The notes under the pieces were generated by a model. It was given only the letters and a program-made list of their open reading frames with translations, was not told where the DNA came from and searched no databases. 64,000 nt of DNA from Tragulus kanchil. Lineage: Eukaryota; Chordata; Mammalia; Artiodactyla; Tragulidae. Both the position numbers and the translations under genes were made by a program. Below, one piece after another: positions 1-63,619 of the stretch; position 1 is the stretch's first letter; every line of letters begins with the position of its first letter. The stretch lies in NCBI GenBank assembly GCA_022376925.1, contig JAIOJX010000004.1, positions 127,001,123 through 127,065,122 of the forward strand, written 5' to 3'.

Positions 1-1714
1 ACATGGAAGGTTTCCACTTTCCAAGTTTTCTTAACTGACTGATGACGCATGCTGAAACAAGAATCCTATTTTTCTTTTCAATAATTTGTTCTCCTTTCTG
101 GGAGGGTGGCCTGTGAAATTTAGTTAAAACTTTTTATTTCCACACTACCAAACATTATGTCAAACTAAGCTTTGCAGCTTACATTGCTATAGACCTGAGT
201 GAGTAGGGCTTTATCAACCTGACGCCTGTCTTGTTTATTTAGGAAACTCCCCTCCTCCTCTGCTTTTTCTACACTGCTCCCATTCTTCTTCTATGACTCT
301 GTTTCCTCTTTTTTCGCTGAGCCAGGAAATTTTGATAGCTCCAAGTTCTTACAGTCCTTGTTCCTCATGTTCTGTTAAGTCTAACTCAGGACTCCCGTTA
401 TTCCTTCATAAGCTTGCTATACAGGCCATGTATATACTTAACTTACATGCACCATGATTCATGAATTCTAAGACTCTTTTGATTGCGGTATGCACCATTA
501 TTTTATCTACCATTAAAAGATTAATAATGCTACCAATTTAAACATCTATGCAAGCCATCAAATATATGGCATATTCCAACTTCAGAAATACTAAAATATG
601 AACAAAACTATCTTTGAGTCAAAAATTATATATAGATTAAAACAAGAAGAAAAGAGAATTTAGAATAAGGCATGAAAGCAGTTTTTCAAAATACCAATTA
701 AATTCTGTTTTCAAGTTAAGTTAATCTGTGTGTCCTACATTGTTTACTCCCAAATGTTACTGATGGAAGTACTGCTTATCTGGAAATACTTACAATTAAT
801 TTGTTCACAAATCACCAAAATAAATATTTTTTAGCCTAATCACATCTCTAATATTATTATAACTGGCCACGACTAAATTTCAACAGTGGTTCAACAGTAG
901 GGTTTTTTCCCTCATGAACTGAGCATTTTGCTATTTTTCTAAAAAATACTTTCTAAATATTGTCTGCCACTTGATTGTACTCAGCCAGAGTTGGTTTGGG
1001 ACTAGGTTTTGCAAAATCAGGGGTTTTGTCCAACAATGGCTAATTTGGGTTTTGGTTTGGCATTGTGGTCTAGAAGAACATGGAAGGTTTCCACTTTCCA
1101 AGTTTTCTTAACTGACTGATGACGCATGCTGAAACAAGAATCCTATTTTTCTTTTCAATAATTTGTTCTCCTTTCTGGGAGGGTGGCCTGTGAAATTTAG
1201 TTAAAACTTTTTATTTCCACACTACCAAACATTATGTCAAACTAAGCTTTGCAGCTTACATTGCTATAGACCTGAGTGAGTAGGGCTTTATCAACCTGAC
1301 GCCTGTCTTGTTTATTTAGGAAACTCCCCTCCTCCTCTGCTTTTTCTACACTGCTCCCATTCTTCTTCTATGACTCTGTTTCCTCTTTTTTCGCTGAGCC
1401 AGGAAATTTTGATAGCTCCAAGTTCTTACAGTCCTTGTTCCTCATGTTCTGTTAAGTCTAACTCAGGACTCCCGTTATTCCTTCATAAGCTTGCTATACA
1501 GGCCATGTATATACTTAACTTACATGCACCATGATTCATGAATTCTAAGACTCTTTTGATTGCGGTATGCACCATTATTTTATCTACCATTAAAAAGATT
1601 AATAATGCTACCAATTTAAACATCTATGCAAGCCATCAAATATATGGCATATTCCAACTTCAGAAATACTAAAATATGAACAAAACTATCTTTGAGTCAA
1701 AAAATTATATATAG
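1..1714. repeat. Tandem pair 1, period 1077 bp, cut by window start
   Basis: Bases 1 to about 634 recur at 1078 to about 1714 in the same orientation. Copy A evidently starts before the window, so the second copy probably begins near 634. Copies differ in homopolymers: the A-run near 516 has four bases in A and five near 1593 in B. After 'tatatatag' the copies part, A continuing with a garbled version of what follows in B. AT-rich non-coding DNA with no recognised repeat family. Confidence 0.93.
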
Positions 1715-3632
1715 TAATTTAAAGCAAGAAGAAAAGAGAATACCTTTAAATATCCTCATAAAGTCAGAACCACTGACTGTCTTCCATTTGGATTTACTGA
1801 TTGTCTACAGCCCTACCTATGTCTTCTTTCATTCAGTTTTTACATTACCAAAAGTGCCTACCATGAGCAGGTCCTGTGTGCAGGTACTGAGGATATACAA
1901 TACATATGAGTTAGTCTTTGTGTATGAGATGTTTTTGCTTGTGGAATGGATACAGAAGGCAGCTAGAAAATTATGATAAAGTGACTATCAATATACTACC
2001 CAGAAGCACAAAACTCTATGGGAGCACAGTGAAAGGTGACCTAACTCGGCTTTCCAGAGGTTATGGAGAGCAATGGAGAAAGGCAGCTTCTGAGCCATGC
2101 TCTCAAAGATGGCTGCGAAGAGTTAGCTATTTGAAAGGACAAGGCAGAGGAAGAAAGGTATTTGAGTAAAGGAAATAGTAGGCAACAAGGGAAATTTTAG
2201 CTTTGTATTCTTTCAAATGCAAAGGTCTCCATAAAACTGCAGGACAGGAAGAAGTGAGGTGAGCTAGGACCAGCTGGTGAATGGCCTTGCCTATTGTGCA
2301 GATGAGATGAAAATTCATTCTGAAGACACTGGCGAACCAATGAGGGTTTTAAGCAAAAGTGACGAGATCAATTTCACCTTTTATTTTACATTGTCTTTTA
2401 CTTTGTATTCAATAAGAATCAAATTAATCATGAATAACTGGGTCATCTCTGTAACTTTGGCCTCTGAAGTTTCACTGAGATTGCACTGAATACTCAGCTT
2501 TGTTTGTTCCTTCCAAGAGATTTTTTTTTTTTTTTTCCCCCCCAATTCGTTTTTCCAAATTTTGATTTTTATTTTATTCAAATTATTCAAATCATCCTTT
2601 CCATTTCTATACAGGCCATGTATATACTTAACTTACATGCACCATGATTCATGAATTCTAAGACTCTTTTGATTGCGGTATGCACCATTATTTTATCTAC
2701 CATTAAAAAGATTAATAATGCTACCAATTTAAACATCTATGCAAGCCATCAAATATATGGCATATTCCAACTTCAGAAATACTAAAATATGAACAAAACT
2801 ATCTTTGAGTCAAAAAATTATATATAGTAATTTAAAGCAAGAAGAAAAGAGAATACCTTTAAATATCCTCATAAAGTCAGAACCACTGACTGTCTTCCAT
2901 TTGGATTTACTGATTGTCTACAGCCCTACCTATGTCTTCTTTCATTCAGTTTTTACATTACCAAAAAGTGCCTACCATGAGCAGGTCCTGTGTGCAGGTA
3001 CTGAGGATATACAATACATATGAGTTAGTCTTTGTGTATGAGATGTTTTTGCTTGTGGAATGGATACAGAAGGCAGCTAGAAAATTATGATAAAGTGACT
3101 ATCAATATACTACCCAGAAGCACAAAACTCTATGGGAGCACAGTGAAAGGTGACCTAACTCGGCTTTCCAGAGGTTATGGAGAGCAATGGAGAAAGGCAG
3201 CTTCTGAGCCATGCTCTCAAAGATGGCTGCGAAGAGTTAGCTATTTGAAAGGACAAGGCAGAGGAAGAAAGGTATTTGAGTAAAGGAAATAGTAGGCAAC
3301 AAGGGAAATTTTAGCTTTGTATTCTTTCAAATGCAAAGGTCTCCATAAAACTGCAGGACAGGAAGAAGTGAGGTGAGCTAGGACCAGCTGGTGAATGGCC
3401 TTGCCTATTGTGCAGATGAGATGAAAATTCATTCTGAAGACACTGGCGAACCAATGAGGGTTTTAAGCAAAAAGTGACGAGATCAATTTCACCTTTTATT
3501 TTACATTGTCTTTTACTTTGTATTCAATAAGAATCAAATTAATCATGAATAACTGGGTCATCTCTGTAACTTTGGCCTCTGAAGTTTCACTGAGATTGCA
3601 CTGAATACTCAGCTTTGTTTGTTCCTTCCAGA
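1494..3632. repeat. Tandem pair 2, period 1113 bp
   Basis: 1494-2518 recurs at 2607-3632. Between the copies lies about 88 bp of filler (2519-2606) with a long T-run, a run of C, and a scrambled version of sequence found intact near 3750. Differences are single-base homopolymer changes, such as the A-run before 'gtgcctacc' at 1850 and 2964. Confidence 0.95.
1830..2400 (+). repeat. Possible ancient interspersed repeat, family not named
   Basis: Phrases here (counts of affected bases 'gtgcctaccatgagcagg', then 'gaatggccttgc', then 'gagggttttaagcaaaa') resemble the diverged medium-reiteration repeats common in mammalian introns. I do not recognise the family. A second copy lies at 2944-3513 because of pair 2. 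Short open frames inside show no coding signature. Confidence 0.3.
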
Positions 3633-5790
3633 GATGCCAATCTGTCCATTTTGATAAATATCCTTTCATTCTTTTTAATTTTCCTCCTCTAATATCTCTT
3701 TCTGAAATTCCTACAAGTTAGTTTGTTAACCCCCTAAATTGATCTTCTGTGATTTTTATTTTATTCAAATTTTTCATCTCCTCATCAGATCATTCCACTT
3801 CAGGAAGCATTCCTAGAATTTATCTTCCAGTTCTAATATCAACTTTTATGGAAGGAATAACATGATTCTATTTTTAACTTCTAAGAATGCTATTGGATTT
3901 TTTCCAGCAATCAGTTATTGTTTACAGATTCAATAACTTTTCGCATTTCCCCCAATAATATAAGATAAGAGTTTTAGCATATGTAATATCCCTGCATTAT
4001 CTCCGTTTCCTTCTTTCCCTGTTTTTATCTTGTTTACTTTGGCCCTCTCTCCATCCTTAAACACAAGGGCGAATCTTTATGTTCTGATGATCCAAGGTGG
4101 TCCATTCATATTTAAGAGTGGAGCTTCGAGACCTGAAAGGAAGCTCGGTACACATGGCTAGCGTTAGCTGAGTCCTTTTCAGGTAGATCTTGTCAGGCAC
4201 CTGGCCATTCCAACCATTAGCCTATTTCTTTAGTTTTGTATCTATATGAGCTAATGGATATTCACCAAACATATGTGATGATAATTTTAGGGTGCAGGTA
4301 AAATCATTCTACTGTACAACTTAAACTATACGGTCCTGTATGTCAATTATATCTCAATAAAACTAGAAAAAAAAAAGTAAATACTACTTTTTAAAAAATA
4401 AATCCCATTTGACTTTCATACACCTTCAGAAAATGCTGCTATACTCATAAAGGTCTTTATTTAAGTGTGTATCGTATGGGTAGTGTGAACTGATCAAAGA
4501 AGGACATTGAGTCTGATGGAATACAGTGCAGAGATGACAGACAAGAAACAGCAGAGTGAACCACGAACTGAGAAAAGGTAGCAGAAGCATGAACTCCAAA
4601 TCAGCCAAGAAAACTGTAAATCATTCTCTTTCCCCACCAGAATCCACTGTCTTTTACTTTGTATTCAATAAGAATCAAATTAATCATGAATAACTGGGTC
4701 ATCTCTGTAACTTTGGCCTCTGAAGTTTCACTGAGATTGCACTGAATACTCAGCTTTGTTTGTTCCTTCCAGAGATGCCAATCTGTCCATTTTGATAAAT
4801 ATCCTTTCATTCTTTTTAATTTTCCTCCTCTAATATCTCTTTCTGAAATTCCTACAAGTTAGTTTGTTAACCCCCTAAATTGATCTTCTGTGATTTTTAT
4901 TTTATTCAAATTTTTCATCTCCTCATCAGATCATTCCACTTCAGGAAGCATTCCTAGAATTTATCTTCCAGTTCTAATATCAACTTTTATGGAAGGAATA
5001 ACATGATTCTATTTTTAACTTCTAAGAATGCTATTGGATTTTTTCCAGCAATCAGTTATTGTTTACAGATTCAATAACTTTTCGCATTTCCCCCAATAAT
5101 ATAAGATAAGAGTTTTAGCATATGTAATATCCCTGCATTATCTCCGTTTCCTTCTTTCCCTGTTTTTATCTTGTTTACTTTGGCCCCTCTCTCCATCCTT
5201 AAACACAAGGGCGAATCTTTATGTTCTGATGATCCAAGGTGGTCCATTCATATTTAAGAGTGGAGCTTCGAGACCTGAAAGGAAGCTCGGTACACATGGC
5301 TAGCGTTAGCTGAGTCCTTTTCAGGTAGATCTTGTCAGGCACCTGGCCATTCCAACCATTAGCCTATTTCTTTAGTTTTGTATCTATATGAGCTAATGGA
5401 TATTCACCAAACATATGTGATGATAATTTTAGGGTGCAGGTAAAATCATTCTACTGTACAACTTAAACTATACGGTCCTGTATGTCAATTATATCTCAAT
5501 AAAACTAGAAAAAAAAAAGTAAATACTACTTTTTAAAAAATAAATCCCATTTGACTTTCATACACCTTCAGAAAATGCTGCTATACTCATAAAGGTCTTT
5601 ATTTAAGTGTGTATCGTATGGGTAGTGTGAACTGATCAAAGAAGGACATTGAGTCTGATGGAATACAGTGCAGAGATGACAGACAAGAAACAGCAGAGTG
5701 AACCACGAACTGAGAAAAAGGTAGCAGAAGCATGAACTCCAAATCAGCCAAGAAAACTGTAAATCATTCTCTTTCCCCACCAGAATCCAC
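3508..5790. repeat. Tandem pair 3, period 1141 bp
   Basis: 3508-4648 recurs at 4649-5790 with no filler. The A end and B start share 'ccact'/'gtcttttact'-type short homology. Differences are homopolymer lengths, such as three versus four C after 'tttgg' at 4039 and 5180. The first part is already present at 2394-2500, so that stretch occurs three times. Confidence 0.95.
4215..4375 (+). mobile_element. L1-type LINE 3' end fragment
   Basis: The stretch ends 'tatgtcaattatatctcaat' then 'aaaactag' and a run of A, the usual 3' end of old artiodactyl L1 copies. The body is 5'-truncated with no coding capacity. Artefactual second copy at about 5356-5516. Confidence 0.65.
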
Positions 5791-8133: not shown

Positions 8134-8334
8134 GGGGGTTCACTGGTGACTCAGCAGTGAAGAATCTGAAGAGACTAGAGTTCAATTTCTGGATCAGAAA
8201 GATTCCTTGAAGGAGGGCATAGCAACTCACTCCAGGATTCTTGCCTGGAGAATCCCCTGGACAGGGGAGCCTGGTGGGCTACAGTCCATGGGGTCGCAAA
8301 GGGTTGGACACGACTAAAGCAACTTAGCATTCAG
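8134..8334 (+). mobile_element. Bov-tA SINE, plus strand
   Basis: The head 'ttcactggtgactcagcagt' is followed by the tail 'cttgcctggagaatcccctg' and 'ggtcgcaaagggttggacac'. Part of the tRNA-derived box B region is shortened. Pair 4 starts inside this element, so its tail recurs at 9301-9444. Confidence 0.93.
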
Positions 8335-10350
8335 GCAATCCACTTTCGCTTTCGCTATGCTGGTTGCTTTGCGACATGTATTTACTTAGACTCTGAAGAC
8401 ATTGTATATTCCATGCAATATGAATATCTTTGTCTGGTCTTTCATTTATAATTTGGAGAAAGGTTAATAAACAAAATGTCACCCTAAAAAGTAAGATGAT
8501 CTCTTACAAGATTCAGAGTCTTATCAGATTATCTGCAACTTAAAATTTTGATGATTTACATAAATCAGTTGCAAGCTGAAACAAACTCAATATGTTTAAT
8601 TCTCTTTTCACATCACAAATGTGTAACAGGAGCTCTTCTAACAATAGAAGAAATTTATATAACATTTTTGTCATGATTGACTTTATTTTGCTGTGATATG
8701 CAGGACAGGCATTTTTCAAATTGAAGAATATCACATATAGAGATCAGTCATTTGCTACAGAACACAAAGTGGCAATTATGCCGATATTAACCACCGTGCC
8801 AGCTCTACCTCAGCACAGTGTACCCTGCATTGAACTGAAACAAGTGTCTCTTCTACTGAGAAATCTCAAACTTCAGCCTTCTTTGTTACAAGTAAATTAT
8901 CCTATGATTTTGCGTCCTCATTACCACTTGTGTTCTTTAAAGTGTTTTCTAATATATTTCAGAAGATACATTCAGATAAATAAGAAGTATTTCTACTCAC
9001 TACTTAACCTAATACTTGTATTGCTTTTTAAAGAAATGTTCGAATATTTGTTGTGTCTGGAGTTATATAGTATTAATAGTTCAGCTTGGAAACTCCTCAT
9101 TAATAATAAAGAATACATATGCTTCAAAAAACGTGATTTCAACCCAAAAGTTTCCCCAGTCCAAAGAGTAACTTTTCTACCTGCTTCACCTCAGACTTTA
9201 CTATTTGTGTGACTAACACTTCTCTACCAATCCTCACATTTTTTAAAGAATGGACATATGCTTCAAAAACGTGCATGAGTCTATTCACTTGCGTTCTTTG
9301 GATTCAGAAAGATTCCTTGAAGGAGGGCATAGCAACTCACTCCAGGATTCTTGCCTGGAGAATCCCTGGACAGAGGAGACTGGTGGGCTACAGTCCATGG
9401 GGTCGCAAAGGGTTGGACACGACTAAAGCAACTTAGCATTCAGGCAATCCACTTTCGCTTTCGCTATGCTGGTTGCTTTGCGACATGTATTTACTTAGAC
9501 TCTGAAGACATTGTATATTCCATGCAATATGAATATCTTTGTCTGGTCTTTCATTTATAATTTGGAGAAAGGTTAATAAACAAAATGTCACCCTAAAAAG
9601 TAAGATGATCTCTTACAAGATTCAGAGTCTTATCAGATTATCTGCAACTTAAAATTTTGATGATTTACATAAATCAGTTGCAAGCTGAAACAAACTCAAT
9701 ATGTTTAATTCTCTTTTCACATCACAAATGTGTAACAGGAGCTCTTCTAACAATAGAAGAAATTTATATAACATTTTTGTCATGATTGACTTTATTTTGC
9801 TGTGATATGCAGGACAGGCATTTTTCAAATTGAAGAATATCACATATAGAGATCAGTCATTTGCTACAGAACACAAAGTGGCAATTATGCCGATATTAAC
9901 CACCGTGCCAGCTCTACCTCAGCACAGTGTACCCTGCATTGAACTGAAACAAGTGTCTCTTCTACTGAGAAATCTCAAACTTCAGCCTTCTTTGTTACAA
10001 GTAAATTATCCTATGATTTTGCGTCCTCATTACCACTTGTGTTCTTTAAAGTGTTTTCTAATATATTTCAGAAGATACATTCAGATAAATAAGAAGTATT
10101 TCTACTCACTACTTAACCTAATACTTGTATTGCTTTTTAAAGAAATGTTCGAATATTTGTTGTGTCTGGAGTTATATAGTATTAATAGTTCAGCTTGGAA
10201 ACTCCTCATTAATAATAAAGAATACATATGCTTCAAAAAACGTGATTTCAACCCAAAAGTTTCCCCAGTCCAAAGAGTAACTTTTCTACCTGCTTCACCT
10301 CAGACTTTACTATTTGTGTGACTAACACTTCTCTACCAATCCTCACATTG
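8195..10350. repeat. Tandem pair 4, period about 1109 bp
   Basis: 8195-9241 recurs at 9305-10350. Filler 9242-9304 is a scrambled rehash of bases near 9110-9140 ('acatatgcttcaaaaa'). The copies differ at 8253-8270 versus 9363-9379 by one C and several substitutions. The unit's longest frame (163 codons at 8721-9212, again at 9830-10321) has no recognisable domain and no splice or promoter context. I do not call it a gene. Confidence 0.95.
9301..9444 (+). mobile_element. Bov-tA SINE tail, second copy from pair 4
   Basis: Same tail as 8192-8334 with the head missing because the copied block begins inside the SINE. It would not be an independent insertion if the duplication is artefactual. Confidence 0.85.
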
Positions 10351-12190
10351 TTTTCCTTGCTTGGATGGAAGGCTCTATCTCTTCCTATGGGCTTTTCTTA
10401 GGACTGCTATAATCAGCGAGCATTCCTCAGCTAAGAGAAACCAGATGGCCATGAAGAGACATTTATGTTCCCCTCCCATGTCCTCTGGGAAATCCTCCTT
10501 CATAAAGGACAAGCATGCTGACTTGGCACTCTGAGACTTACATTAATCCAAATAACAAAGGAAAATTTTTCCTATCTTGATAACAGGCATAAGCCATGAG
10601 GATCCTACCTTTACATAGCAAGAAATCAACTTGTCTGAAGACAGCCCTGAATTGTGCCATATATATAGTACCAAAATAATGTTCTGTTTCAATGAAAATA
10701 TTTTAGGTGAAATAGAAGACTATGATTTGGCATTAAAACACCCATAGATTCTTAGAGATTAAAATGAATATGTATCTAGCAAAAACAAAGGATCGTAAAA
10801 CATAGCTAAGGTCACCATATTGGTGCTATGAAAACACAGATAATTTAAAAACTATAATATCTATATTCTTCTTCCTTGTTTTTCATCAAATGTTTGAGAG
10901 GTCATACAGAGTAATTGAAAGGTCACTGGGTGGGGTAATGAGACTCCAAAGGATTGGTTTGAATCTTGGCACCTTCACAAGCAATCTAATTACACTTGAA
11001 GGCATTCCCTGACTTTTCTGAGATAATTGTCTCATCTTTCAGCTGGAGGCAATTATCCTGGCTTAATTGCAAGATGGATATTAGGGTCAAAAAAAAAATT
11101 CATGCAAGCAAGGTTACATCGTCCTCATTACCACTTGTGTTCTTTAAAGTGTTTTCTAATATATTTCAGAAGATACATTCAGATAAATAAGAAGTATTTC
11201 TACTCACTACTTAACCTAATACTTGTATTGCTTTTTAAAGAAATGTTCGAATATTTGTTGTGTCTGGAGTTATATAGTATTAATAGTTCAGCTTGGAAAC
11301 TCCTCATTAATAATAAAGAATACATATGCTTCAAAAAACGTGATTTCAACCCAAAAGTTTCCCCAGTCCAAAGAGTAACTTTTCTACCTGCTTCACCTCA
11401 GACTTTACTATTTGTGTGACTAACACTTCTCTACCAATCCTCACATTGTTTTCCTTGCTTGGATGGAAGGCTCTATCTCTTCCTATGGGCTTTTCTTAGG
11501 ACTGCTATAATCAGCGAGCATTCCTCAGCTAAGAGAAACCAGATGGCCATGAAGAGACATTTATGTTCCCCTCCCATGTCCTCTGGGAAATCCTCCTTCA
11601 TAAAGGACAAGCATGCTGACTTGGCACTCTGAGACTTACATTAATCCAAATAACAAAGGAAAATTTTTCCTATCTTGATAACAGGCATAAGCCATGAGGA
11701 TCCTACCTTTACATAGCAAGAAATCAACTTGTCTGAAGACAGCCCTGAATTGTGCCATATATATAGTACCAAAATAATGTTCTGTTTCAATGAAAATATT
11801 TTAGGTGAAATAGAAGACTATGATTTGGCATTAAAACACCCATAGATTCTTAGAGATTAAAATGAATATGTATCTAGCAAAAACAAAGGATCGTAAAACA
11901 TAGCTAAGGTCACCATATTGGTGCTATGAAAACACAGATAATTTAAAAACTATAATATCTATATTCTTCTTCCTTGTTTTTCATCAAATGTTTGAGAGGT
12001 CATACAGAGTAATTGAAAGGTCACTGGGTGGGGTAATGAGACTCCAAAGGATTGGTTTGAATCTTGGCACCTTCACAAGCAATCTAATTACACTTGAAGG
12101 CATTCCCTGACTTTTCTGAGATAATTGTATCATCTTTCAGATGGAGGCAATTATACTGGCTTAATTTGCAAGATGGATATTAGGGTCAAA
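10022..12190. repeat. Tandem pair 5, period 1098 bp
   Basis: 10022-11090 recurs at 11120-12190, with filler at 11091-11119. The part beginning 'cgtcctcattaccacttg' also occurs at 8912, giving three copies. The last 60 bases of copy A differ from B by three c/a changes and an indel, while the rest is nearly identical, so errors cluster at the junction. Confidence 0.95.
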
Positions 12191-12364: not shown

Positions 12365-14532
12365 CCCCACCTCACCCACAAAATACCATCAGTAACTTCA
12401 TGATGTAGAATTGCCTTTGATAGCCATATCCTGACTACCAAAGACGCCTCTGAAAGAAGACCGATTTGAAGCCCTTTAGATTAACTTCCTGACTTTATGA
12501 AGTCAGAAAAAAGAAAAAACAAGCTCTGGAACATCTCATTAGACAAGCACATGACAGCAATATGGGCCTCTTTCTAGGGCTCAGAAGCCAAACAGACTTT
12601 GTACCTATTTGTTTTCACCCCTGTGGTGTGAAGCACGCAGGACAGACGAGGTCATTTTCCAGATCATCTGACTCCAGCTTGAAATCAGTAACTCAGAAGG
12701 AAAAAATGTTGGGAGCACAGGGGCATCAGAGAGGGGGCTGGGTCTGGGCCAGCTGATAAAGGCTGATAATGTTGAGTGGAGAGGGCCGAATGTGACTCTG
12801 TGGATCCTTGATCCCAAAAGGCACTCCTCAGTGCACACAGATGTCTGGGTCCCCTCTGGAGAGAAATTAGGGTAAAATAGTCACAGTATCAGACAAGGGG
12901 GACTATAATATCCACAGTCTGAGCTCAACACTGACAAAATATTACTTTTCCTATAAAATCCTCCATGTGAAAAGTTCTCTAAATCACGAAAATTCTAGAC
13001 AGCTTGCTTATCTACAGCACCCGTTGGTAACCCCACAGTAACTAACACAAGAAAAGTTGAATGACTGAACTCCACAGAGCACCTAAAAGTAGCAGTGATT
13101 TTTTCTTTTTATTATGGAAATTTTAAAATATAAATCTAAATAGAGACAATTGACTGCTTCAACAATCCTGTTTCTCTATTCTCCTCAGTTTGGGGATGGA
13201 GGAGATTATTAATATTTTAAAGAAACTCCAAAATATCACATCATTGTATCCATAAACACTTTATATCTCTAATTCATAAGGATGATACACTCACACTCGA
13301 CAAAATTAGTAATTCCTTAATGTAGCTCAGAGAGTAAAGAATCTACCTGCAATGCAGGAGACCTAGGTTTGATCCTCGGGTCAGGAAGATCCTCTGGAAA
13401 AGGAAATGGCAACCCACTCTGTCATTCTTGCCTGGAATTTGAGGGGGCCTGGTGCCCCACCTCAACCACAAAATACCATCAGTAACTTCATGATGTAGAA
13501 TTGCCTTTGATAGCCATATCCTGACTACCAAAGACGCCTCTGAAAGAAGACCGATTTGAAGCCCTTTAGATTAACTTCCTGACTTTATGAAGTCAGAAAA
13601 AAGAAAAAACAAGCTCTGGAACATCTCATTAGACAAGCACATGACAGCAATATGGGCCTCTTTCTAGGGCTCAGAAGCCAAACAGACTTTGTACCTATTT
13701 GTTTTCACCCCTGTGGTGTGAAGCACGCAGGACAGACGAGGTCATTTTCCAGATCATCTGACTCCAGCTTGAAATCAGTAACTCAGAAGGAAAAAATGTT
13801 GGGAGCACAGGGGCATCAGAGAGGGGGCTGGGTCTGGGCCAGCTGATAAAGGCTGATAATGTTGAGTGGAGAGGGCCGAATGTGACTCTGTGGATCCTTG
13901 ATCCCAAAAGGCACTCCTCAGTGCACACAGATGTCTGGGTCCCCTCTGGAGAGAAATTAGGGTAAAATAGTCACAGTATCAGACAAGGGGTACTATAATA
14001 TCCACAGTCTGAGCTCAACACTGACAAAATATTACTTTTCCTATAAAATCCTCCATGTGAAAAGTTCTCTAAATCACGAAAATTCTAGACAGCTTGCTTA
14101 TCTACAGCACCCGTTGGTAACCCCACAGTAACTAACACAAGAAAAAGTTGAATGACTGAACTCCACAGAGCACCTAAAAGTAGCAGTGATTTTTACTTTT
14201 TTTATTATGGAAATTTTAAAATATAAATCTAAATAGAGACAATTGACTGCTTCAACAATCCTGTTTTCTCTATTCTCCCTCAGTTTGGGGGATGGAGTAG
14301 ATTATTAATATTTTAAAGAAACTCCAAAATATCACATCATTGTATCCATAAACACTTTATATCTCTAATTCATAAGGATGATACACTCACACTCGACAAA
14401 ATTAGTAATTCCTTAATGTAGCTCAGAGAGTAAAGAATCTACCTGCAATGCAGGAGACCTAGGTTTGATCCTCGGGTCAGGAAGATCCTCTGGAAAAGGA
14501 AATGGCAACCCACTCTGTCATTCTTGCCTGGA
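12365..14532. repeat. Tandem pair 6, period 1090-1096 bp
   Basis: 12365-13436 recurs at 13455-14532. Filler 13437-13454 is G-rich. The period grows from 1090 to 1096 through one-base homopolymer insertions in B, as at 14145, 14196 and 14206. Copy A stops inside a Bov-tA SINE that is complete in B. The unit is otherwise non-coding. Confidence 0.95.
13321..13436 (+). mobile_element. Bov-tA SINE, truncated by the pair 6 junction
   Basis: Head 'tgtagctcagagagtaaaga' and box B 'ggtttgatcctcgggtcagg' are present. The element stops at 'cctgga' where the copied block ends. Confidence 0.88.
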
Positions 14533-14614
14533 GAATTCCATGGACAGGGGAGCCTGGTGGACTATGGTCTGTGGGCCACAAAGAGTCAGACATGACTGAG
14601 CAACTAAAACTTTC
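14417..14614 (+). mobile_element. Bov-tA SINE, complete
   Basis: Full head and tail: 'ggtttgatcctcgggtcagg', 'cttgcctggagaattccatg', 'cacaaagagtcagacatgac'. It is the intact counterpart of 13321-13436. Confidence 0.93.
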
Positions 14615-15229: not shown

Positions 15230-15325
15230 AGGATATCCTATGGGAAACTCTTCCTCTGAGCTCCTTTATATGCTTGCTTTGGAGGATAATTGACTTGTAG
15301 GATATATGGGTTCCTGTTAGCCAAC

Positions 15326-15369
15326 ATATATATACACACACACACACACATACACAGAGAGAGAGAGAA
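15326..15369. repeat. Compound (TA)(CA)(GA) microsatellite
   Basis: Short runs of TA, CA and GA directly upstream of a BovB 3' end. Second copy at 16397-16440. Confidence 0.9.
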
Positions 15370-15370
15370 G

Positions 15371-15532
15371 AGGACAGCTGAGGATGAGATGATTGGATGG
15401 TTGGATAGTGTCACTGACTCAATGGACATGAACTTGAGGAAACTCCGGGAGATAGTAGAGGACAGAGGAACTTGGAGTGCTTCAGTTCAGTGGGTCACAA
15501 AGAGTCAGACACGACTTAGCGACTGAAAAACA
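15371..15532 (+). mobile_element. BovB (RTE) LINE 3' end
   Basis: The stretch 'gactcaatggacatgaactt' followed by 'aaactccgggagatagt' and 'cacgacttagcgactga' is the 3' end of BovB, 5'-truncated. Second copy at 16442-16603. Confidence 0.93.
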
Positions 15533-15894
15533 ATTATATTATATATACTTTATAATATATCACCATACAAAGAAATTACATAGTTTTCACCCTGTACATT
15601 TTATATCCATGACTCTTTTCTTTTGCATCTGTAAATTTCTCAATCTCCCTCACCTATTTCTTTTCTCCCCCAATCCCCATTGCCTCTGGTAATAACCATG
15701 TTTGTTTGTATCTATAACTTTGTTTCCATTTTGTCATGTTTATTCATTTTTGTTTGTTTTTTAGATTTCATAAATTTCCTTTTCCTTATAAGAACAAGGA
15801 AAAGGAAACTTATGTTGGGTTTAGCATCCAACTTAATTCAGTAGGACTTTATTGCTTCTCAGCTAAGATTGAGGGTAGTATCTGTTATCAGTAG

Positions 15895-16040
15895 GACTTT
15901 ATCTTAACTTGATTACATCTGCAAAAAACAAACAAACAAACAAACAAAAAAAAACCTATTTCTAAAGAAGGTCACATTCACAAGTTCCAAGCTAGACATG
16001 AATTTTTGGAGGACACTATTCAACACAATACAATGGTCAA
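15895..16040 (+). repeat. Ancient interspersed repeat with (CAAA)n insertion
   Basis: The phrases 'cttgattacatctgcaaa', 'aaggtcacattc' and 'ggaggacactattcaaca' match a mammalian repeat also seen, more diverged, at 23405-23545. A (CAAA)n run splits it at 15923-15950. Second copy 16966-17111. Family name not assigned. Confidence 0.5.
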
Positions 16041-16441
16041 AAATCATCTCTGTGAGTGGTAAGAGTGGTAAGAGTGGTAAGAGAGCTCACCGGTTGTGAA
16101 TCTACAGAAAGACAGTCGAGGCAGAGAACAGTGAGGATGGAGGTCTGAGACATGAACAGGCCTGGTGAGTAAAGCAAGTGAGGGGAAGGTCAGTAGGAAG
16201 AGCAGCTACAAAGGGAGTTGGGGTGGAGGGTGGTCAGGACAGATGTGGAGGCTATTTCTGAAAACTCTGACTCTGGCTTGGATGGCGAAGGACGTCTTGA
16301 AGGATATCCTATGGGAAACTCTTCCTCTGAGCTCCTTTATATGCTTGCTTTGGAGGATAATTGACTTGTAGGATATATGGGTTCCTGTTAGCCAACATAT
16401 ATATACACACACACACACACATACACAGAGAGAGAGAGAAG

Positions 16442-16603
16442 AGGACAGCTGAGGATGAGATGATTGGATGGTTGGATAGTGTCACTGACTCAATGGACAT
16501 GAACTTGAGGAAACTCCGGGAGATAGTAGAGGACAGAGGAACTTGGAGTGCTTCAGTTCAGTGGGTCACAAAGAGTCAGACACGACTTAGCGACTGAAAA
16601 ACA
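16442..16603 (+). mobile_element. BovB LINE 3' end, second copy from pair 7
   Basis: Identical to 15371-15532 at an offset of 1071. Confidence 0.9.
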
Positions 16604-17784: not shown

Positions 17785-17905
17785 CACATAAGAAATGTTA
17801 AGGTTCAGAGAGGTTAAGCAAAGCATCCAGTCATATGGATAGCTGATGTCAGAGGCAGGGTTCAAATTTATACACATTTAGTCTCAATTCCATGTGATTT
17901 TCATT
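17785..17905 (-). mobile_element. MIR SINE, minus strand
   Basis: 'ggttcagagaggttaagcaa' and 'agaggcagggttcaaattta' are the reverse complement of the MIR core. Second copy about 18915-19035. Confidence 0.8.
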
Positions 17906-23092: not shown

Positions 23093-23164
23093 AAAAAAAA
23101 AACTTTTTTCAGACAAAAGTTATGTTGTCATCAACTATACCGTACTATACTTGTACTACTACTG

Positions 23165-48460: not shown

Positions 48461-48536
48461 CCAGTTCTCTCTTCAATGAAAGAATTGGAACTCTGAATAG
48501 ACAGCATAGGTTACTGGTTAAGAGCTTGAGTTTTGA

Positions 48537-50823
48537 ACTGCATATGAGTATGTGTGCAACCTAGCTTTCTGTTGAAGATAAGGGATATGACAGCTGAGCT
48601 TTATTTTCTTTATCATTAAAATGAGTTGCCTTCAAACTAAAAGATGAAGTTATTAAAATAACCTTCTCAGCGCTACTGCTTCAGAAAGGTATCTGCTCCA
48701 GGAATATAATGCTCAATCAACGCAGTGACTAAGCTGATACTGGAACATGGTCTTGTTCTCATTGTTTGTGGTCTTTAGGCAAGCTGAAATCTAGAGATGA
48801 ATATATTTGGGCTGAAAAGGAGAGGACCATCTTTCTTACATACTGTGAATCTATTAAATGAGGGTCAATCAAGAAAAGGTACGGGCACACAGATGTTAAG
48901 TCTTAGGGCACCACTTGAATCTCCTCTGGGCAGAGCAGTTGAGTCCTCCTGAAATCTAGCATGAATCCATGCCCAAAGAACTGGAAAGTGAAGAATAACT
49001 TCATTACCGGATCCCTGTCGGGTGCAGCTGCCCTCCTTGTTCTGTTAATAAACATTTCACCCAAATGACCTCACTTTTTTTTTTCCTATTTTAAATGTCC
49101 TACGGAGGAGCCTGTTGTAATCTTTCAGACTATGTAATGCAGATGCTAACATGCTTTTTGTTATCTTTTAGTGCAGCAGACATAAGCCAAATGTGTGTGA
49201 ACAATTGTCAGAGGGTTCACATAGTTCTGTGAAGAATGCTGAACCAGTCTGACTTTGGGACTTTTAATCCAGATGGGAACCATGTAACTTAACTGGTAAA
49301 CCAGAGGATCAGAAGTTAGAATGGTACACATAGTAGGTGCTCAAATCACCCTTAAAGGAAAATATCAGCTTTACTACATCAGTGTGGAGTGGTGGTGGTG
49401 TTATTTTTTAGGTTCTGTTTTGGGGTTTCTTTTCATAACCTTTGCCTCTGAAGTCAGACATCTTAAATAAAATCCTGGTTTCAAAGTAAAAATCAAATAT
49501 GTAACTGATAGAACAAGCTCTTCTGGCCATAGGTGGTTGACAATAGGAGATTTAATATCGATTTCTGTCTGGACCAATGTTCAGCTATAGCTGAGGCTTT
49601 TCAGAAGCATCCGTGTACTTGAATTCAAATGATAATTTTATTCAATGTCCAACCTGTCTTCTGGAGGATATAAGTTGGTAACTTGATTTGACTGCATATG
49701 AGTATGTGTGCAACCTAGCTTTCTGTTGAAGATAAGGGATATGACAGCTGAGCTTTATTTTCTTTATCATTAAAATGAGTTGCCTTCAAACTAAAAGATG
49801 AAGTTATTAAAATAACCTTCTCAGCGCTACTGCTTCAGAAAGGTATCTGCTCCAGGAATATAATGCTCAATCAACGCAGTGACTAAGCTGATACTGGAAC
49901 ATGGTCTTGTTCTCATTGTTTGTGGTCTTTAGGCAAGCTGAAATCTAGAGATGAATATATTTGGGCTGAAAAGGAGAGGACCATCTTTCTTACATACTGT
50001 GAATCTATTAAATGAGGGTCAATCAAGAAAAGGTACGGGCACACAGATGTTAAGTCTTAGGGCACCACTTGAATCTCCTCTGGGCAGAGCAGTTGAGTCC
50101 TCCTGAAATCTAGCATGAATCCATGCCCAAAGAACTGGAAAGTGAAGAATAACTTCATTACCGGATCCCTGTCGGGTGCAGCTGCCCTCCTTGTTCTGTT
50201 AATAAACATTTCACCCAAATGACCTCACTTTTTTCCTATTTTAAATGTCCTACGGAGGAGCCTGTTGTAATCTTTCAGACTATGTAATGCAGATGCTAAC
50301 ATGCTTTTTGTTATCTTTTAGTGCAGCAGACATAAGCCAAATGTGTGTGAACAATTGTCAGAGGGTTCACATAGTTCTGTGAAGAATGCTGAACCAGTCT
50401 GACTTTGGGACTTTTAATCCAGATGGGAACCATGTAACTTAACTGGTAAACCAGAGGATCAGAAGTTAGAATGGTACACATAGTAGGTGCTCAAATCACC
50501 CTTAAAGGAAAATATCAGCTTTACTACATCAGTGTGGAGTGGTGGTGGTGTTATTTTTTAGGTTCTGTTTTGGGGTTTCTTTTCATAACCTTTGCCTCTG
50601 AAGTCAGACATCTTAAATAAAATCCTGGTTTCAAAGTAAAAATCAAATATGTAACTGATAGAACAAGCTCTTCTGGCCATAGGTGGTTGACAATAGGGAG
50701 ATTTAATATCGATTTCTGTCTGGACCAATGTTCAGCTATAGCTGAGGCTTTTCAGAAGCATCCGTGTACTTGAATTCAAATGATAATTTTATTCAATGTC
50801 CAACCTGTCTTCTGGAGGATATA
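48537..50823. repeat. Tandem pair 19, period 1150-1154 bp
   Basis: 48537-49672 recurs at 49691-50823, with filler 49673-49690. The T-run after 'cctcac' is longer at 49075 than at 50228, which accounts for the change in period. Confidence 0.95.
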
Positions 50824-52884
50824 TTGACGCATAGATATTTGCTTAGCTGCCTGATAACTTGTTCTTGGGATTCTTGATTTGTCAGCTTGTCTAAAGTTTC
50901 TATGGGTTGTAACTGAAAGTTGGATGAAAGTATTTACCTAACACCAGCCAGGGAACATACAAGTGTCAGCGATTGCTGTCTACAAGAAATTTAGAGAAAA
51001 CAAAAACTACTCAGCTAGCATGTGGTTTTATCATGATTAAGTGATACAGAGCAGAGTTCAGAGAAAGAAAAGGACTCTGGTGTGCTGATGGACATGGCCT
51101 TTAAAGAAATAGTGGAAGTTACATCAGCAAAGGTAGGAAGAAAATGCATTCTAGGCAGAAGCTCATAAGTATATTATGTAGATGTATGCCCATAGAGTAC
51201 TGACAGGACCGTTTGACCAAGAAAAGGCACAAGTGGTAGAGAGATCAAGGGTGACACATTTGTAAAGGAGAGCTGGATTGCCCTGAGCTTTGAATACCAT
51301 GGCAAGAACTTAGATATTATCTGCTAAGCAGTAGATCTCTTTATTAAATCAGGAGAATGTAATGCTGACTCAGACCAACTAACTGGAAGGATGAGTTTAA
51401 ATGGCAGATTGTTTAAGAAGTTGAAGAGAAACCTATTTTTCATGAAAAATCAGAAAAATAAATATTTTAGTATTAAGGAACAAATGACAAATGGCAACTG
51501 TGTATTACGTCTAGTATGTTTAGTACACTGCTCTTTACCAGACCATGTGCATGCTAGAAAAGTAGGAACAATGTTCCTCTGACCTCAAAATTCCATTGAG
51601 TTAGGGGAAGAGTTAATGGCAACCCACTCCTCATATAGTTGTGTGTGCAACTGTATTACAGGTAAAGATTTGCCTGGAGAATCCCACGGACAGAGGAACC
51701 TAGCAGACTATGGTTCACATCGTCACAAAAACTGGACATGACTTAATGACTAAACCACCACCATAGTCCTCAGATTCTCAAGGATAGTACAAACTATTTT
51801 CTAAAAAAAAGGGGGGCTATAGCTGAGGCTTTTCAGAAGCATCCGTGTACTTGAATTCAAATGATAATTTTATTCAATGTCCAACCTGTCTTCTGGAGGA
51901 TATATTGACGATAGATATTTGCTTAGCTGCCTGATAACTTGTTCTTGGGATTCTTGATTTGTCAGCTTGTCTAAAGTTTCTATGGGTTGTAACTGAAAGT
52001 TGGATGAAAGTATTTACCTAACACCAGCCAGGGAACATACAAGTGTCAGCGATTGCTGTCTACAAGAAATTTAGAGAAAACAAAAACTACTCAGCTAGCA
52101 TGTGGTTTTATCATGATTAAGTGATACAGAGCAGAGTTCAGAGAAAGAAAAGGACTCTGGTGTGCTGATGGACATGGCCTTTAAAGAAATAGTGGAAGTT
52201 ACATCAGCAAAGGTAGGAAGAAAAATGCATTCTAGGCAGAAGCTCATAAGTATATTATGTAGATGTATGCCCATAGAGTACTGACAGGACCGTTTGACCA
52301 AGAAAAGGCACAAGTGGTAGAGAGATCAAGGGTGACACATTTGTAAAGGAGAGCTGGATTGCCCTGAGCTTTGAATACCATGGCAAGAACTTAGATATTA
52401 TCTGCTAAGCAGTAGATCTCTTTATTAAATCAGGAGAATGTAATGCTGACTCAGACCAACTAACTGGAAGGATGAGTTTAAATGGCAGATTGTTTAAGAA
52501 GTTGAAGAGAAACCTATTTTTCATGAAAAATCAGAAAAATAAATATTTTAGTATTAAGGAACAAATGACAAATGGCAACTGTGTATTACGTCTAGTATGT
52601 TTAGTACACTGCTCTTTACCAGACCATGTGCATGCTAGAAAAGTAGGAACAATGTTCCTCTGACCTCAAAATTCCATTGAGTTAGGGGAAGAGTTAATGG
52701 CAACCCACTCCTCATATAGTTGTGTGTGCAACTGTATTACAGGTAAAGATTTGCCTGGAGAATCCCACGGACAGAGGAACCTAGCAGACTATGGTTCACA
52801 TCGTCACAAAAACTGGACATGACTTAATGACTAAACCACCACCATAGTCCTCAGATTCTCAAGGATAGTACAAACTATTTTCTA
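50735..52884. repeat. Tandem pair 20, period 1081 bp
   Basis: 50735-51803 recurs at 51816-52884. The 12-base filler is only A followed by G. The first 90 bp overlap pair 19, giving three copies of 'gctatagctgaggctttt' (49581, 50735, 51816). Confidence 0.96.
51614..51755 (+). mobile_element. Bov-tA SINE tail with a foreign 30-bp insert
   Basis: 'aatggcaacccactcc' is normal, but the usual seven bases before 'ttgcctggagaatcccac' are replaced by about 38 bases. Of these, 51639-51672 match 54937-54970 at all but one position. The tail ends 'ggacatgacttaatgacta'. Second copy 52695-52836. Confidence 0.85.
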
Positions 52885-55254: not shown

Positions 55255-55265
55255 TCCATTAGGTT

Positions 55266-58387: not shown

Positions 58388-60566
58388 GCCTTCAAAAGCT
58401 TGTCTTTGCACAGGGCTAGAGTTCAGCTAAGGAAACAAACGATCTAATTGCATTCTCTCATGCTAAAAATGCCTACATAATAAGACTGAAAAATAGCAGA
58501 TGCCACTGTGGAGTGACTCTGAAACTTCAAGGACCAACTCAAGTTCCTTTTATTTAATGACCATATGTAATAAGGATCATAAAGAGAAGCTACAAATGGA
58601 GTCCCTATTCAATTGTTTCCATCCATTCATTTTTTCCTTAAGTATTTAAATATTAGTTACTTAACAGACACAAAATTTTGCCACAAATCATTAATGATTC
58701 GGATATCAGATGAGATTGCTCCAAATGCTAATGAAATTACTTGGTTAAATAGTGCATATTTTATCAATCAAGAAAATTTCCTTCACAGTGAATCATTGAT
58801 GTTGACAGTCCTGCATAGACTAATCAGAAATCTTTTTTGTAGTTGAGTATAAATGTGACATTTCATAATGGCCCAGGTGGTTTCTATAGAAGACTAGCAA
58901 AGTGGCCGGTGATAAGGAACCATGTCTACTAGTTCACCTTCAGCTAAATCTGTAGACCTATGTGGCACCCCTGTGATTTGTCATCATAAGAAGGGAATGA
59001 GGGCTTCCCTGGTAGCTCAGTGGTGAAGAGTTCACCTGCCAATGCAGGAGACACGGGTTTGATCCCTGATCTGGGAAGATCCCACACACTGCGAAGCAAT
59101 TAAGCCCGTGAGTCACAACTATTGAGCCTGTGCTCTAGAGCTTCAGAATCACAACTATTGAGCCCATGTGCTGCAACTACTGAAGCCCATGTGCCCTAGA
59201 GCCCAAGTTCCACACAAGAGAAGTCACCACAACAAGAAGCCTGCTCAGCTCACTGGAGAGTAGCCCACATTCCTGCAACTAGAGAAGAGCATGCGGCAGC
59301 AGTGAAAACCTAGAATAGCCAAAAATAAATAAATAATTTTTTAAAAAGGCAATGAAACCCAATAGGGATGGTGTACATGCAACACGTCTGCGTGGAGGAA
59401 CGATTCACGTCTCATCCACTGATTCTGCAAGCATCCCGATAGTAAATTAGATTTTTGGCCAATTACTTGCCCAAGCCTTCAAAAGCTTGTCTTTGCACAG
59501 GGCTAGAGTTCAGCTAAGGAAACAAACGATCTAATTGCATTCTCTCATGCTAAAAATGCCTACATAATAAGACTGAAAAATAGCAGATGCCACTGTGGAG
59601 TGACTCTGAAACTTCAAGGACCAACTCAAGTTCCTTTTATTTAATGACCATATGTAATAAGGATCATAAAGAGAAGCTACAAATGGAGTCCCTATTCAAT
59701 TGTTTCCATCCATTCATTTTTTCCTTAAGTATTTAAATATTAGTTACTTAACAGACACAAAATTTTGCCACAAATCATTAATGATTCGGATATCAGATGA
59801 GATTGCTCCAAATGCTAATGAAATTACTTGGTTAAATAGTGCATATTTTATCAATCAAGAAAATTTCCTTCACAGTGAATCATTGATGTTGACAGTCCTG
59901 CATAGACTAATCAGAAATCTTTTTTGTAGTTGAGTATAAATGTGACATTTCATAATGGCCCAGGTGGTTTCTATAGAAGACTAGCAAAGTGGCCGGTGAT
60001 AAGGAACCATGTCTACTAGTTCACCTTCAGCTAAATCTGTAGACCTATGTGGCACCCCTGTGATTTGTCATCATAAGAAGGGAATGAGGGCTTCCCTGGT
60101 AGCTCAGTGGTGAAGAGTTCACCTGCCAATGCAGGAGACACGGGTTTGATCCCTGATCTGGGAAGATCCCACACACTGCGAAGCAATTAAGCCCGTGAGT
60201 CACAACTATTGAGCCTGTGCTCTAGAGCTTCAGAATCACAACTATTGAGCCCATGTGCTGCAACTACTGAAGCCCATGTGCCCTAGAGCCCAAGTTCCAC
60301 ACAAGAGAAGTCACCACAACAAGAAGCCTGCTCAGCTCACTGGAGAGTAGCCCACATTCCCTGCAACTAGAGAAGAGCATGCGGCAGCAGTGAAAACCTA
60401 GAATAGCCAAAAATAAATAAATAATTTTTTTTAAAAAAGGCAATGAAACCCAATAGGGATGGTGTACATGCAACAGGTCTGGGAGAAGGAAGGATTCTCG
60501 TCTCATCCTCTGATTCTGCGAAAGCATCCCGATAGTAAATTAGATTTTTTGGCCAATTACTTGCCC
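58388..60566. repeat. Tandem pair 21, period 1087-1094 bp
   Basis: 58388-59472 recurs at 59475-60566. Copies are near-identical until the last 90 bp, where A (59385-59440) and B (60473-60530) differ at many bases. The join uses 'aagcctt', which also follows B. Confidence 0.95.
59001..59345 (+). mobile_element. tRNA-Glu-derived SINE, plus strand, full length
   Basis: 'ggcttccctggtagctcagt', 'gggtttgatccctgatctgg', repeated 'attgagcc' body motifs and an (AAAT)n tail. Flanks 'aagggaatga' (58991) and 'aaggcaatga' (59346) differ at one base. Second copy 60088-60437. Confidence 0.94.
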
Positions 60567-61456: not shown

Positions 61457-61859
61457 ATTAAATACCCTAACTGAGTTGTTTATCAGGCTACTAGTATAGG
61501 TTTATAAGAAACAACATATTGCCTTGAATATTACTTCATGTAAATATCAAGTTAAGGCACTGATTACTTCTGCAATCTTGCAGAATAATATCTAGATCCA
61601 AAAAACCAAAATATTGTGTTGGACTTGAGCAAGAAAAATACCATTTTTCGAGGCTCCTCAAAGTCATTGTTTAATACCACATCAAGAACTTATCTTTTAA
61701 AAAAGAGAAAATTTTAAAAAAGAGAAAATAGTCAATGAAATATTCAAGACTTGAGCCATTGAAAATGGTGTATAATGACATAACCAGGACAGGTTTGTTA
61801 GGTACTTTGTTTTTATGCAGCTGATACAAATTAATTTTTCTCCTTCTCCCTTTCCCCAG

Positions 61860-62043
61860 TTCTGGAATGATTTTAATATTAGAAGAGGTGACTAAAGAAA
61901 ACAATCCAGTGGAATATATGTTAGAAAATCTTCAAAGTCACTCTTTAAATCCCAGCATAAAGCTTTTGACATCTGTACAGATTAAGGTGGTACTTGAGAT
62001 CTTTCCTGTGTTCTTTGATGCTTACAGCCAAGAAAGAAAACCA
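61860..62043 (+). CDS. Probable internal coding exon, gene not recognised, copy A
   Basis: A strong 3' splice site (pyrimidine tract 61837-61857 ending 'ccccag') precedes this 184-bp stretch and the donor 'gtaaga' follows at 62044. Only one frame is open across the whole exon: it starts with one base finishing a codon and ends on a codon boundary. It encodes about 61 residues beginning SGMILILEEV, including EYMLENLQSH, and ending QERKP. The residues are leucine- and isoleucine-rich with mixed charge, as in helical-repeat proteins, but I recognise no domain. If exon 1 (38725) is its leader, translation could start at the ATG at 61867, though its context is weak. Confidence 0.5.
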
Positions 62044-62899
62044 GTAAGATGTATCTTCATTTTCTAAAAACTCTTAACTTCATTCTCCGAAACAATATCT
62101 TTGTTTTGACTTTATTTGCAGAAGTCACTTAAATGATTGCCAAAGGTGAGATAAAAATCGATGTCCTGAAAGCTTCTTTAGATAATTGACATTTAATGCT
62201 TGGAATGTATAAGGGTGGCTTTTCCCTGAAGGTTTATGTGATGTCAGGTTCCCTGAATTACTCTTTAAACTTGCAAATGATGTATCACAATTGGTAAGGT
62301 AGATGTCCAGAAATGTTTGCGAAACGGAGGGCCAGTTAATGGTGATGACTTACATGATTGTGACAGAGTTCAATTTGGTTACATTCACACAGATTTATGT
62401 ATAGAATTTATGAAAACATCCTCATCTACTTAGACTTCAGAAGCGAAAGTCTGATATTAAGTGATAGATATTTTTTCTTGTAATTGGAACTTCCTGAGCT
62501 CATCTATCTCTGAACCATATACAGATATTTTGATACTTAGAACACTTTGTTATATACATTTCTCATGTAGTTACTTCATGTAAATATCAAGTTAAGGCAC
62601 TGATTACTTCTGCAATCTTGCAGAATAATATCTAGATCCAAAAAACCAAAATATTGTGTTGGACTTGAGCAAGAAAAATACCATTTTTCGAGGCTCCTCA
62701 AAGTCATTGTTTAATACCACATCAAGAACTTATCTTTTAAAAAAGAGAAAATTTTAAAAAAGAGAAAATAGTCAATGAAATATTCAAGACTTGAGCCATT
62801 GAAAATGGTGTATAATGACATAACCAGGACAGGTTTGTTAGGTACTTTGTTTTTATGCAGCTGATACAAATTAATTTTTCTCCTTCTCCCTTTCCCCAG

Positions 62900-63083
62900 T
62901 TCTGGAATGATTTTAATATTAGAAGAGGTGACTAAAGAAAACAATCCAGTGGAATATATGTTAGAAAATCTTCAAAGTCACTCTTTAAATCCCAGCATAA
63001 AGCTTTTGACATCTGTACAGATTAAGGTGGTACTTGAGATCTTTCCTGTGTTCTTTGATGCTTACAGCCAAGAAAGAAAACCA
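62900..63083 (+). CDS. Probable internal coding exon, copy B
   Basis: Exact repeat of 61860-62043 at an offset of 1040, with the same splice sites. Splicing both copies would put the phase wrong: copy A ends on a codon boundary while copy B needs two bases carried in. Two tandem copies in one transcript would therefore shift frame. This favours a single real exon. Confidence 0.45.
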
Positions 63084-63619
63084 GTAAGATGTATCTTCAT
63101 TTTCTAAAAACTCTTAACTTCATTCTCCGAAACAATATCTTTGTTTTGACTTTATTTGCAGAAGTCACTTAAATGATTGCCAAAGGTGAGATAAAAATCG
63201 ATGTCCTGAAAGCTTCTTTAGATAATTGACATTTAATGCTTGGAATGTATAAGGGTGGCTTTTCCCTGAAGGTTTATGTGATGTCAGGTTCCCTGAATTA
63301 CTCTTTAAACTTGCAAATGATGTATCACAATTGGTAAGGTAGATGTCCAGAAATGTTTGCGAAACGGAGGGCCAGTTAATGGTGATGACTTACATGATTG
63401 TGACAGAGTTCAATTTGGTTACATTCACACAGATTTATGTATAGAATTTATGAAAACATCCTCATCTACTTAGACTTCAGAAGCGAAAGTCTGATATTAA
63501 GTGATAGATATTTTTTCTTGTAATTGGAACTTCCTGAGCTCATCTATCTCTGAACCATATACAGATATTTTGATACTTAGAACACTTTGTTATATACATT
63601 TCTCAATGTAGTTACTTCA

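What the first reader, a model, noticed from the sequence alone, without database searches (positions are those of the whole stretch)
1..63619. Twenty-two unrelated ~1.1-kb blocks, each present as an adjacent direct duplicate
Pairs start at about 1, 1494, 3508, 8195, 10022, 12365, 15230, 17719, 20675, 22672, 25277, 28427, 30734, 32734, 35997, 38035, 43281, 45178, 48537, 50735, 58388 and 61531. Periods all lie between 1034 and 1180 bp although the sequences are unrelated. Biological tandem duplication would give varied lengths. A fixed length independent of content points to an assembly unit. Fuzzy de Bruijn-type long-read assemblers use graph nodes of about 1 kb that adjacent edges share; an unmerged shared node would appear twice. 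That link is my inference.
Basis: partly seen in the sequence, partly recalled or inferred. Interest (0 to 1): 0.9.

Follow-up and report, generated by a model that had tools for sequence, protein, structure and literature searches.

The report
Unmerged assembler overlaps, not duplicated DNA
The twenty-two back-to-back repeats of about 1.1 thousand letters are almost certainly an error of the genome-assembly software, turn up on every sampled chromosome of this mammal assembly and seem to make it about a quarter too long.

Summary
All 22 adjacent direct duplicates are present, with periods of 1036-1180 bp and near-identical copies; no tandem pair of another size was found. It is not local: one 10-kb stretch from each of the 16 large scaffolds of the same 3.17-Gb assembly gave pairs in 16 of 16, 38 pairs, periods 1056-1201. 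All 60 pairs fall between 1024 and 1280 bp. Copies differ mostly by indels, clustered at block ends (61 of 86 differences within 100 bp of an end in the window, 18% expected; 71 of 115 in the sample). Neighbouring blocks overlap by at most 340 bp, and no junction-to-junction piece is shorter than 1847 bp. These are signs of fixed-overlap consensus pieces laid end to end without merging the shared segment. Dropping second copies would take 3.17 Gb to about 2.3 Gb. That it is an artefact is near certain; naming the assembler is likely but unproven without reads or the assembly record.

The parts
1..1741 (.). pair 1: copy 1 ..659 (begins before the window), copy 2 686-1741
   Evidence: (L002); period 1077
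1494..3635 (.). pair 2: 1494-2521 / 2607-3635; overlaps pair 1 by 248 bp
   Evidence: period 1113; 85-bp low-complexity filler at the junction
3507..5789 (.). pair 3: 3507-4646 / 4648-5789; overlaps pair 2 by 129 bp
   Evidence: period 1141
8190..10353 (.). pair 4: 8190-9244 / 9299-10353
   Evidence: period 1109
10022..12190 (.). pair 5: 10022-11091 / 11120-12190; overlaps pair 4 by 332 bp
   Evidence: period 1098
12365..14559 (.). pair 6: 12365-13454 / 13455-14559
   Evidence: period 1090
15230..17371 (.). pair 7: 15230-16300 / 16301-17371, identical copies
   Evidence: period 1071
17719..19974 (.). pair 8: 17719-18841 / 18866-19974
   Evidence: period 1147 by end-to-end alignment (1129 by BLAST)
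20675..23011 (.). pair 9: 20675-21840 / 21846-23011
   Evidence: period 1171
22672..25022 (.). pair 10: 22672-23850 / 23852-25022; overlaps pair 9 by 340 bp
   Evidence: period 1180
25270..27499 (.). pair 11: 25270-26360 / 26392-27499
   Evidence: period 1122 (1124 by BLAST from 25277)
28427..30597 (.). pair 12: 28427-29511 / 29512-30597
   Evidence: period 1085
30734..32956 (.). pair 13: 30734-31830 / 31868-32956
   Evidence: period 1134
32732..34897 (.). pair 14: 32732-33813 / 33823-34897; overlaps pair 13 by 225 bp
   Evidence: period 1091
35997..38314 (.). pair 15: 35997-37161 / 37167-38314
   Evidence: period 1170 (1156 by BLAST)
38035..40228 (.). pair 16: 38035-39131 / 39132-40228, identical copies; overlaps pair 15 by 280 bp
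   Evidence: period 1097
43273..45415 (.). pair 17: 43273-44308 / 44309-45415; copy 2 carries about 70 extra bases near its start
   Evidence: period 1036
45178..47533 (.). pair 18: 45178-46354 / 46355-47533; overlaps pair 17 by 238 bp
   Evidence: period 1177
48525..50823 (.). pair 19: 48525-49672 / 49682-50823
   Evidence: period 1157
50735..52884 (.). pair 20: 50735-51803 / 51816-52884; overlaps pair 19 by 89 bp
   Evidence: period 1081
58388..60566 (.). pair 21: 58388-59472 / 59475-60566
   Evidence: period 1087; all 7 substitutions lie in the last 100 bp of copy 1
61531..63611 (.). pair 22: 61531-62570 / 62571-63611
   Evidence: period 1040

Best explanation
The pairs are not in the animal's chromosomes. 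They are an assembly artefact. Best supported by the arrangement: the sequence is a string of consensus pieces, each 1.85 kb or longer, whose neighbours share a stretch of about 1.1 kb that was written out twice (end of one piece, start of the next) instead of being merged. Inferred: the pieces are the edges of a fuzzy de Bruijn graph of the wtdbg/wtdbg2 (Redbean) kind, whose vertices are 1024-bp read segments. Each edge gets its own consensus running from one vertex to the next. The join that should align the two copies of the shared vertex failed or was skipped, so the pieces were concatenated. Later polishing (also inferred) made the copies nearly identical except at piece ends, where read support was poor.
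For: (1) Fixed length: 60 of 60 pairs (22 window, by alignment; 38 sample, by BLAST) have periods of 1036-1201, mean 1114, CV 3.3%, all in 1024-1280. (2) Widespread: 16 of 16 stretches, one per large scaffold, hold at least one pair. (3) No tandem pair of another size and no inverted pair at 150 bp or more and 90% or more. (4) Copies differ mainly by indels (62 indels, 24 substitutions in the window; 81 and 34 in 29 complete sample pairs), with 61 of 86 (57 of 81 without pair 1, which the window cuts) and 71 of 115 differences within 100 bp of block ends, against 18% expected. (5) Where neighbours overlap, so that a segment exists three times, the odd copy is usually at a piece end. Columns with one odd copy (gap runs counted once): window 13 first-piece end, 7 last-piece start, 1 middle, of 21; sample 13, 22, 11 middle, 3 undecided, of 49; pooled middle 12 of 70, p 0.002 against one third (columns are not independent). 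(6) All 15 overlaps are 55-340 bp although blocks are 1.1 kb (2e-8 if uniform), and the shortest of 35 pieces is 1847 bp. (7) Dropping second copies takes 3.167 Gb to about 2.31 Gb (bootstrap on the uncorrected 39 pairs 2.13-2.48). (8) wtdbg2 uses 1024-bp segments as vertices (PMC7730629 passage), and wtdbg or wtdbg2 has been used for ruminants (PMC10372904, PMC9650288 passages).
Against: No reads, no independent assembly and no assembly record could be examined. Mean block length is 1114, about 90 more than 1024; I explain this by bin jitter between reads, which I did not test. The triple-copy vote is mixed in the sample: the 11 middle cases come from 2 of the 7 overlaps, L023 (9) and L024 (2). 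The clustering of differences at block ends may be helped a little by alignments that reach into junction noise. Fillers at six of six tested junctions match neither flank convincingly; the best, pair 4 against its upstream flank, was reached by 6 of 300 shuffles. I saw no printed description of wtdbg2 leaving doubled nodes at this rate in the listings or the passages I opened from them.
Confidence: 0.85

Rival explanations
1. Same class of artefact from another step: contigs or gap-filling patches with ~1-kb anchor flanks, or overlapping polishing windows, concatenated without trimming the overlap.
For: Would also give doubled flanks, end-concentrated errors and a fixed overlap set by a parameter.
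Against: Gap filling needs contigs and patches to alternate, yet overlapping neighbours occur consecutively (pairs 1-2-3 in the window; three blocks in a row in L011), which would need contigs of about 2 kb. It does not predict the 340-bp overlap cap or the 1024-bp floor. Polishing windows would have constant spacing, but junction spacing in the window runs from 1847 to 7669 bp.
Confidence: 0.12
2. Uncollapsed haplotypes: the two copies are the two alleles placed side by side (heterotype false duplication).
For: Divergent haplotypes were the primary source of false duplication in a study of three vertebrate species (PMC9516828 abstract and passages).
Against: Copies differ mainly by indels at block ends rather than by spread substitutions; two pairs (7 and 16) are identical over 1.07-1.10 kb. 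Allelic blocks would not have one fixed length.
Confidence: 0.02
3. Real recent tandem duplications in the animal.
For: 75-90% of cattle segmental duplications are organised in local tandem clusters (PMC2796684 abstract).
Against: About a quarter of the sampled sequence would be doubled in units of one length, against 3.1% of cattle sequence (abstract) in intervals with a median of 48.8 kb (passage). End-placed indels and the absence of other lengths also speak against it.
Confidence: 0.01

Closest known systems
Homotype false duplication (Vertebrate Genomes Project terms)
   Same: Same locus written twice, near piece boundaries, with consensus quality differing between copies; one reported case came from a bug in an assembler (FALCON, hummingbird) (PMC8081667 and PMC9516828 passages).
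   Different: Those were often of read length, at contig boundaries, with a gap between after scaffolding (PMC8081667 passages), and 0.4-2.7% of the three earlier assemblies, 0.1% or less of the VGP ones (PMC9516828 table passage). Here the block is a fixed 1.1 kb, without Ns at the window's joins, inside contiguous sequence, and about 27% of the sampled sequence.
wtdbg2/Redbean fuzzy de Bruijn graph node (1024-bp segment)
   Same: Block length floor of 1024 bp; limited overlap of neighbouring blocks; pieces run from block to block.
   Different: In correct output adjacent edges are merged across the shared node (recalled); here they are not. The assembler of this genome is not known to me.

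Membership tests
Homotype false duplication | Same locus present twice in one assembly, near-identical | tested here: inconclusive
   near-identical adjacent copies are shown; that they are one locus follows from the pattern but needs reads
Homotype false duplication | Lies at a boundary between assembled pieces, with worse consensus there | tested here: met
   61 of 86 and 71 of 115 differences within 100 bp of block ends
Homotype false duplication | Abnormal read depth and k-mer copy number over the copies | not testable with these tools
   no reads available
Unmerged wtdbg-type graph nodes | Block length set by a 1024-bp node | tested here: met
   60 of 60 periods in 1024-1280; the mean about 90 above 1024 is unexplained in detail
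Unmerged wtdbg-type graph nodes | Neighbouring nodes overlap only up to a set limit (256 bp default, recalled) | tested here: inconclusive
Unmerged wtdbg-type graph nodes | Assembly made with wtdbg/wtdbg2 | not testable with these tools
Biological segmental duplication | Variable length, divergence spread along the unit | tested here: not met

The most novel reading that the evidence does not exclude
The per-edge consensus pieces of a fuzzy de Bruijn assembly were never merged over much of this genome, so that a chromosome-scale, 3.17-Gb mammal assembly is about 27% false sequence, with roughly 0.77 million doubled nodes (extrapolated from 38 pairs in 156.7 kb of non-N sample). The printed node boundaries would let the assembler's own graph be read back from the finished sequence.
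Probability: 0.6. Interest if true: 0.45.

Novelty: not a real feature. Interest (0 to 1): 0.3.

Why it matters
It is not biology, but it is a large and silent defect. Roughly a quarter of the sampled sequence in a chromosome-scale mammal assembly appears to be false second copy; the window's joins carry no Ns, and blocks this short and this close would hardly stand out in Hi-C maps (inference). It can be expected to give false exon and gene duplications, wrong reading frames, false tandem-duplication calls in comparative work, lowered mapping quality and an inflated genome size (none of these was measured here). The signature (fixed period of 1.03-1.2 kb, end-placed indels) is easy to scan for in other assemblies.

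Tried and rejected
Biological tandem duplication and uncollapsed haplotypes were rejected on length uniformity and on the kind and place of the copy differences. Transposon or viral terminal repeats as a cause were set aside because the different pairs do not share a sequence (among hits of 80% identity and 100 bp with period under 4 kb, only the pairs themselves and the overlap echoes); no search for proviruses or transposons was made. Rfam gave one tRNA match and ARAGORN none. I tried to match six junction fillers to the flanks, without a convincing match. I tried to identify species and assembly from papers (listings; passages) without success. Reports of this exact artefact were sought (listings), with passages of PMC9516828, PMC8081667, PMC9635638, PMC8389630 and PMC10951436; none of what I saw describes it. 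The wtdbg2 paper itself is not held (with a DOI I mis-recalled, with the right one), so what I say of its defaults and of its merging step is recall, apart from the 1024-bp segment.

Counting notes: the BLAST tally gave 39 sample pairs and 23 window pairs; one in each was a single pair split in two (L022, window pair 17), so I use 38 and 22. Nine of the 38 sample pairs are cut by the stretch ends and were left out of the error-placement count (29 used) but kept in the period list. The overlap of 1145 bp listed for L022 came from that split and was dropped, leaving 7 sample overlaps. Overlap lengths differ by up to 5 bp; the extremes 55 and 340 do not change. The other 16 scaffolds, of at most 10.7 Mb each, were not sampled (lengths).

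Full report
What was checked. Periods are 1036-1180 bp, mean 1112, sd 42. The copies lie 0-85 bp apart. BLAST identity is 99% or more in 20 of 22 pairs (pairs 17 and 21 are lower), and two pairs (7 and 16) are identical over 1.07-1.10 kb. About 38% of the window is second copy. The first pair is cut by the window edge: its true junction is at about 659/686 (L002).

Is it local or general? The window lies at C3:127001123-127065122 of an assembly of 3,167,203,957 bases in 32 scaffolds. Sixteen scaffolds are longer than 70 Mb; the others have at most 10.7 Mb and were not sampled (lengths). I took one 10-kb stretch from each of the 16 large ones, at positions chosen without looking (30 Mb on ten; 60 Mb on six). 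All 16 hold at least one such pair, 38 in all, periods 1056-1201 (with one split pair merged). Pooled with the window, 60 of 60 periods lie between 1024 and 1280 with a coefficient of variation of 3.3%. At 150 bp or more and 90% identity or more, no tandem pair of another size and no inverted pair turned up; the remaining direct hits are echoes of overlapping neighbours and one dispersed 264-base repeat.

What kind of differences separate the copies? In the window there are 62 indels and 24 substitutions, and 61 of the 86 lie within 100 bp of a block end, where 18% are expected (57 of 81 without the cut pair 1). In 29 complete sample pairs there are 81 indels and 34 substitutions, with 71 of 115 near ends. 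Real duplicates diverge along their whole length and mostly by substitution (general knowledge); poorly supported consensus ends look like this. Alignments reaching into junction noise may add a little to the clustering.

Which copy is wrong? Eight neighbouring pairs in the window and seven in the sample overlap, so that a short segment exists three times: at the end of one piece, in the middle of the next, and at the start of the third. In the window the odd letter is at a piece end in 20 of 21 columns. In the sample it is at a piece end in 35, in the middle in 11 and undecided in 3 of 49. The 11 middle columns come from two of the seven overlaps (9 in L023, 5 of them at the very edge of its alignment, and 2 in L024). 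Pooled, the middle copy is odd in 12 of 70, less than one third (p 0.002; neighbouring columns are not independent). The direction is as predicted, but the sample is noisier than the window.

How are the blocks arranged? Junction-to-junction pieces are 1847 bp or longer in all 35 measured. Overlaps between neighbouring blocks never exceed 340 bp in 15 cases, though blocks are 1.1 kb long. Blocks of 1024 bp with a permitted overlap of up to 256 bp, each about 90 bp wider in the final consensus, would give just these limits (2 x 1024 - 256 = 1792 for the shortest piece; 256 + 90 for the largest overlap). The 1024-bp segment is documented for wtdbg2 (PMC7730629 passage); the 256-bp default is from memory.

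Genome size. If the sampled fraction (42,359 of 156,668 non-N bases, 27%) holds genome-wide, the collapsed genome is about 2.31 Gb. The bootstrap range of 2.13-2.48 Gb was computed on the uncorrected 39 pairs. This is an ordinary to somewhat low value for a ruminant, while 3.17 Gb is high (general knowledge). At one doubled block per roughly 4.1 kb this is about 0.77 million blocks, an extrapolation from 16 stretches.

Mechanism. Best supported: consensus pieces that share a ~1-kb vertex were concatenated without merging. The arrangement and the place of the errors support this directly. That the pieces are edges of a wtdbg-type graph is inferred from the 1024-bp floor, the overlap cap and the use of that tool for ruminants (sika deer with wtdbg 1.2.8, PMC10372904; mule deer with wtdbg2, PMC9650288; passages only; neither is claimed to be this genome). 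Why the merge failed is not known; a skipped or faulty join step in the consensus program is my guess.

Comparison. It belongs with the homotype false duplications of the Vertebrate Genomes Project (PMC8081667, PMC9516828; passages), in a form that differs by its fixed unit, its joins without Ns in the window and its extent. One of their cases was traced to an assembler bug that was later fixed (PMC8081667 passage). I saw no printed account of this form in the searches. For scale, recent segmental duplications make up 3.1% of cattle sequence (PMC2796684 abstract), in intervals with a median of 48.8 kb (passage).

Limits. No reads, no second assembly and no named record were available. That the host is a ruminant rests on SINE-like peptide motifs in the open frames recognised from memory. 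Sixteen large scaffolds would fit a species with about 15 chromosome pairs; I could not name it.

Noticed in passing
G000 scaffold lengths: Some small scaffolds have round lengths (200000, 225000, 242000 bases), as left by Hi-C scaffolding tools that cut at fixed resolution (recalled).
   Followed up: no
window 2522-2606, 11092-11119, 18842-18865: Fillers between copies are rich in homopolymers and match neither flank convincingly; they look like unsupported consensus ends.
   Followed up: partly
L004/L005 (C8, around 104604673-104605913): Further 1.1-kb tandem pairs on a different scaffold, met by chance because they share a diverged stretch (73% identity) with the window.
   Followed up: partly
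window 7872-7943, - strand: A tRNA match (Rfam RF00005, 33.6 bits) that ARAGORN does not call; perhaps a tRNA-derived SINE.
   Followed up: no
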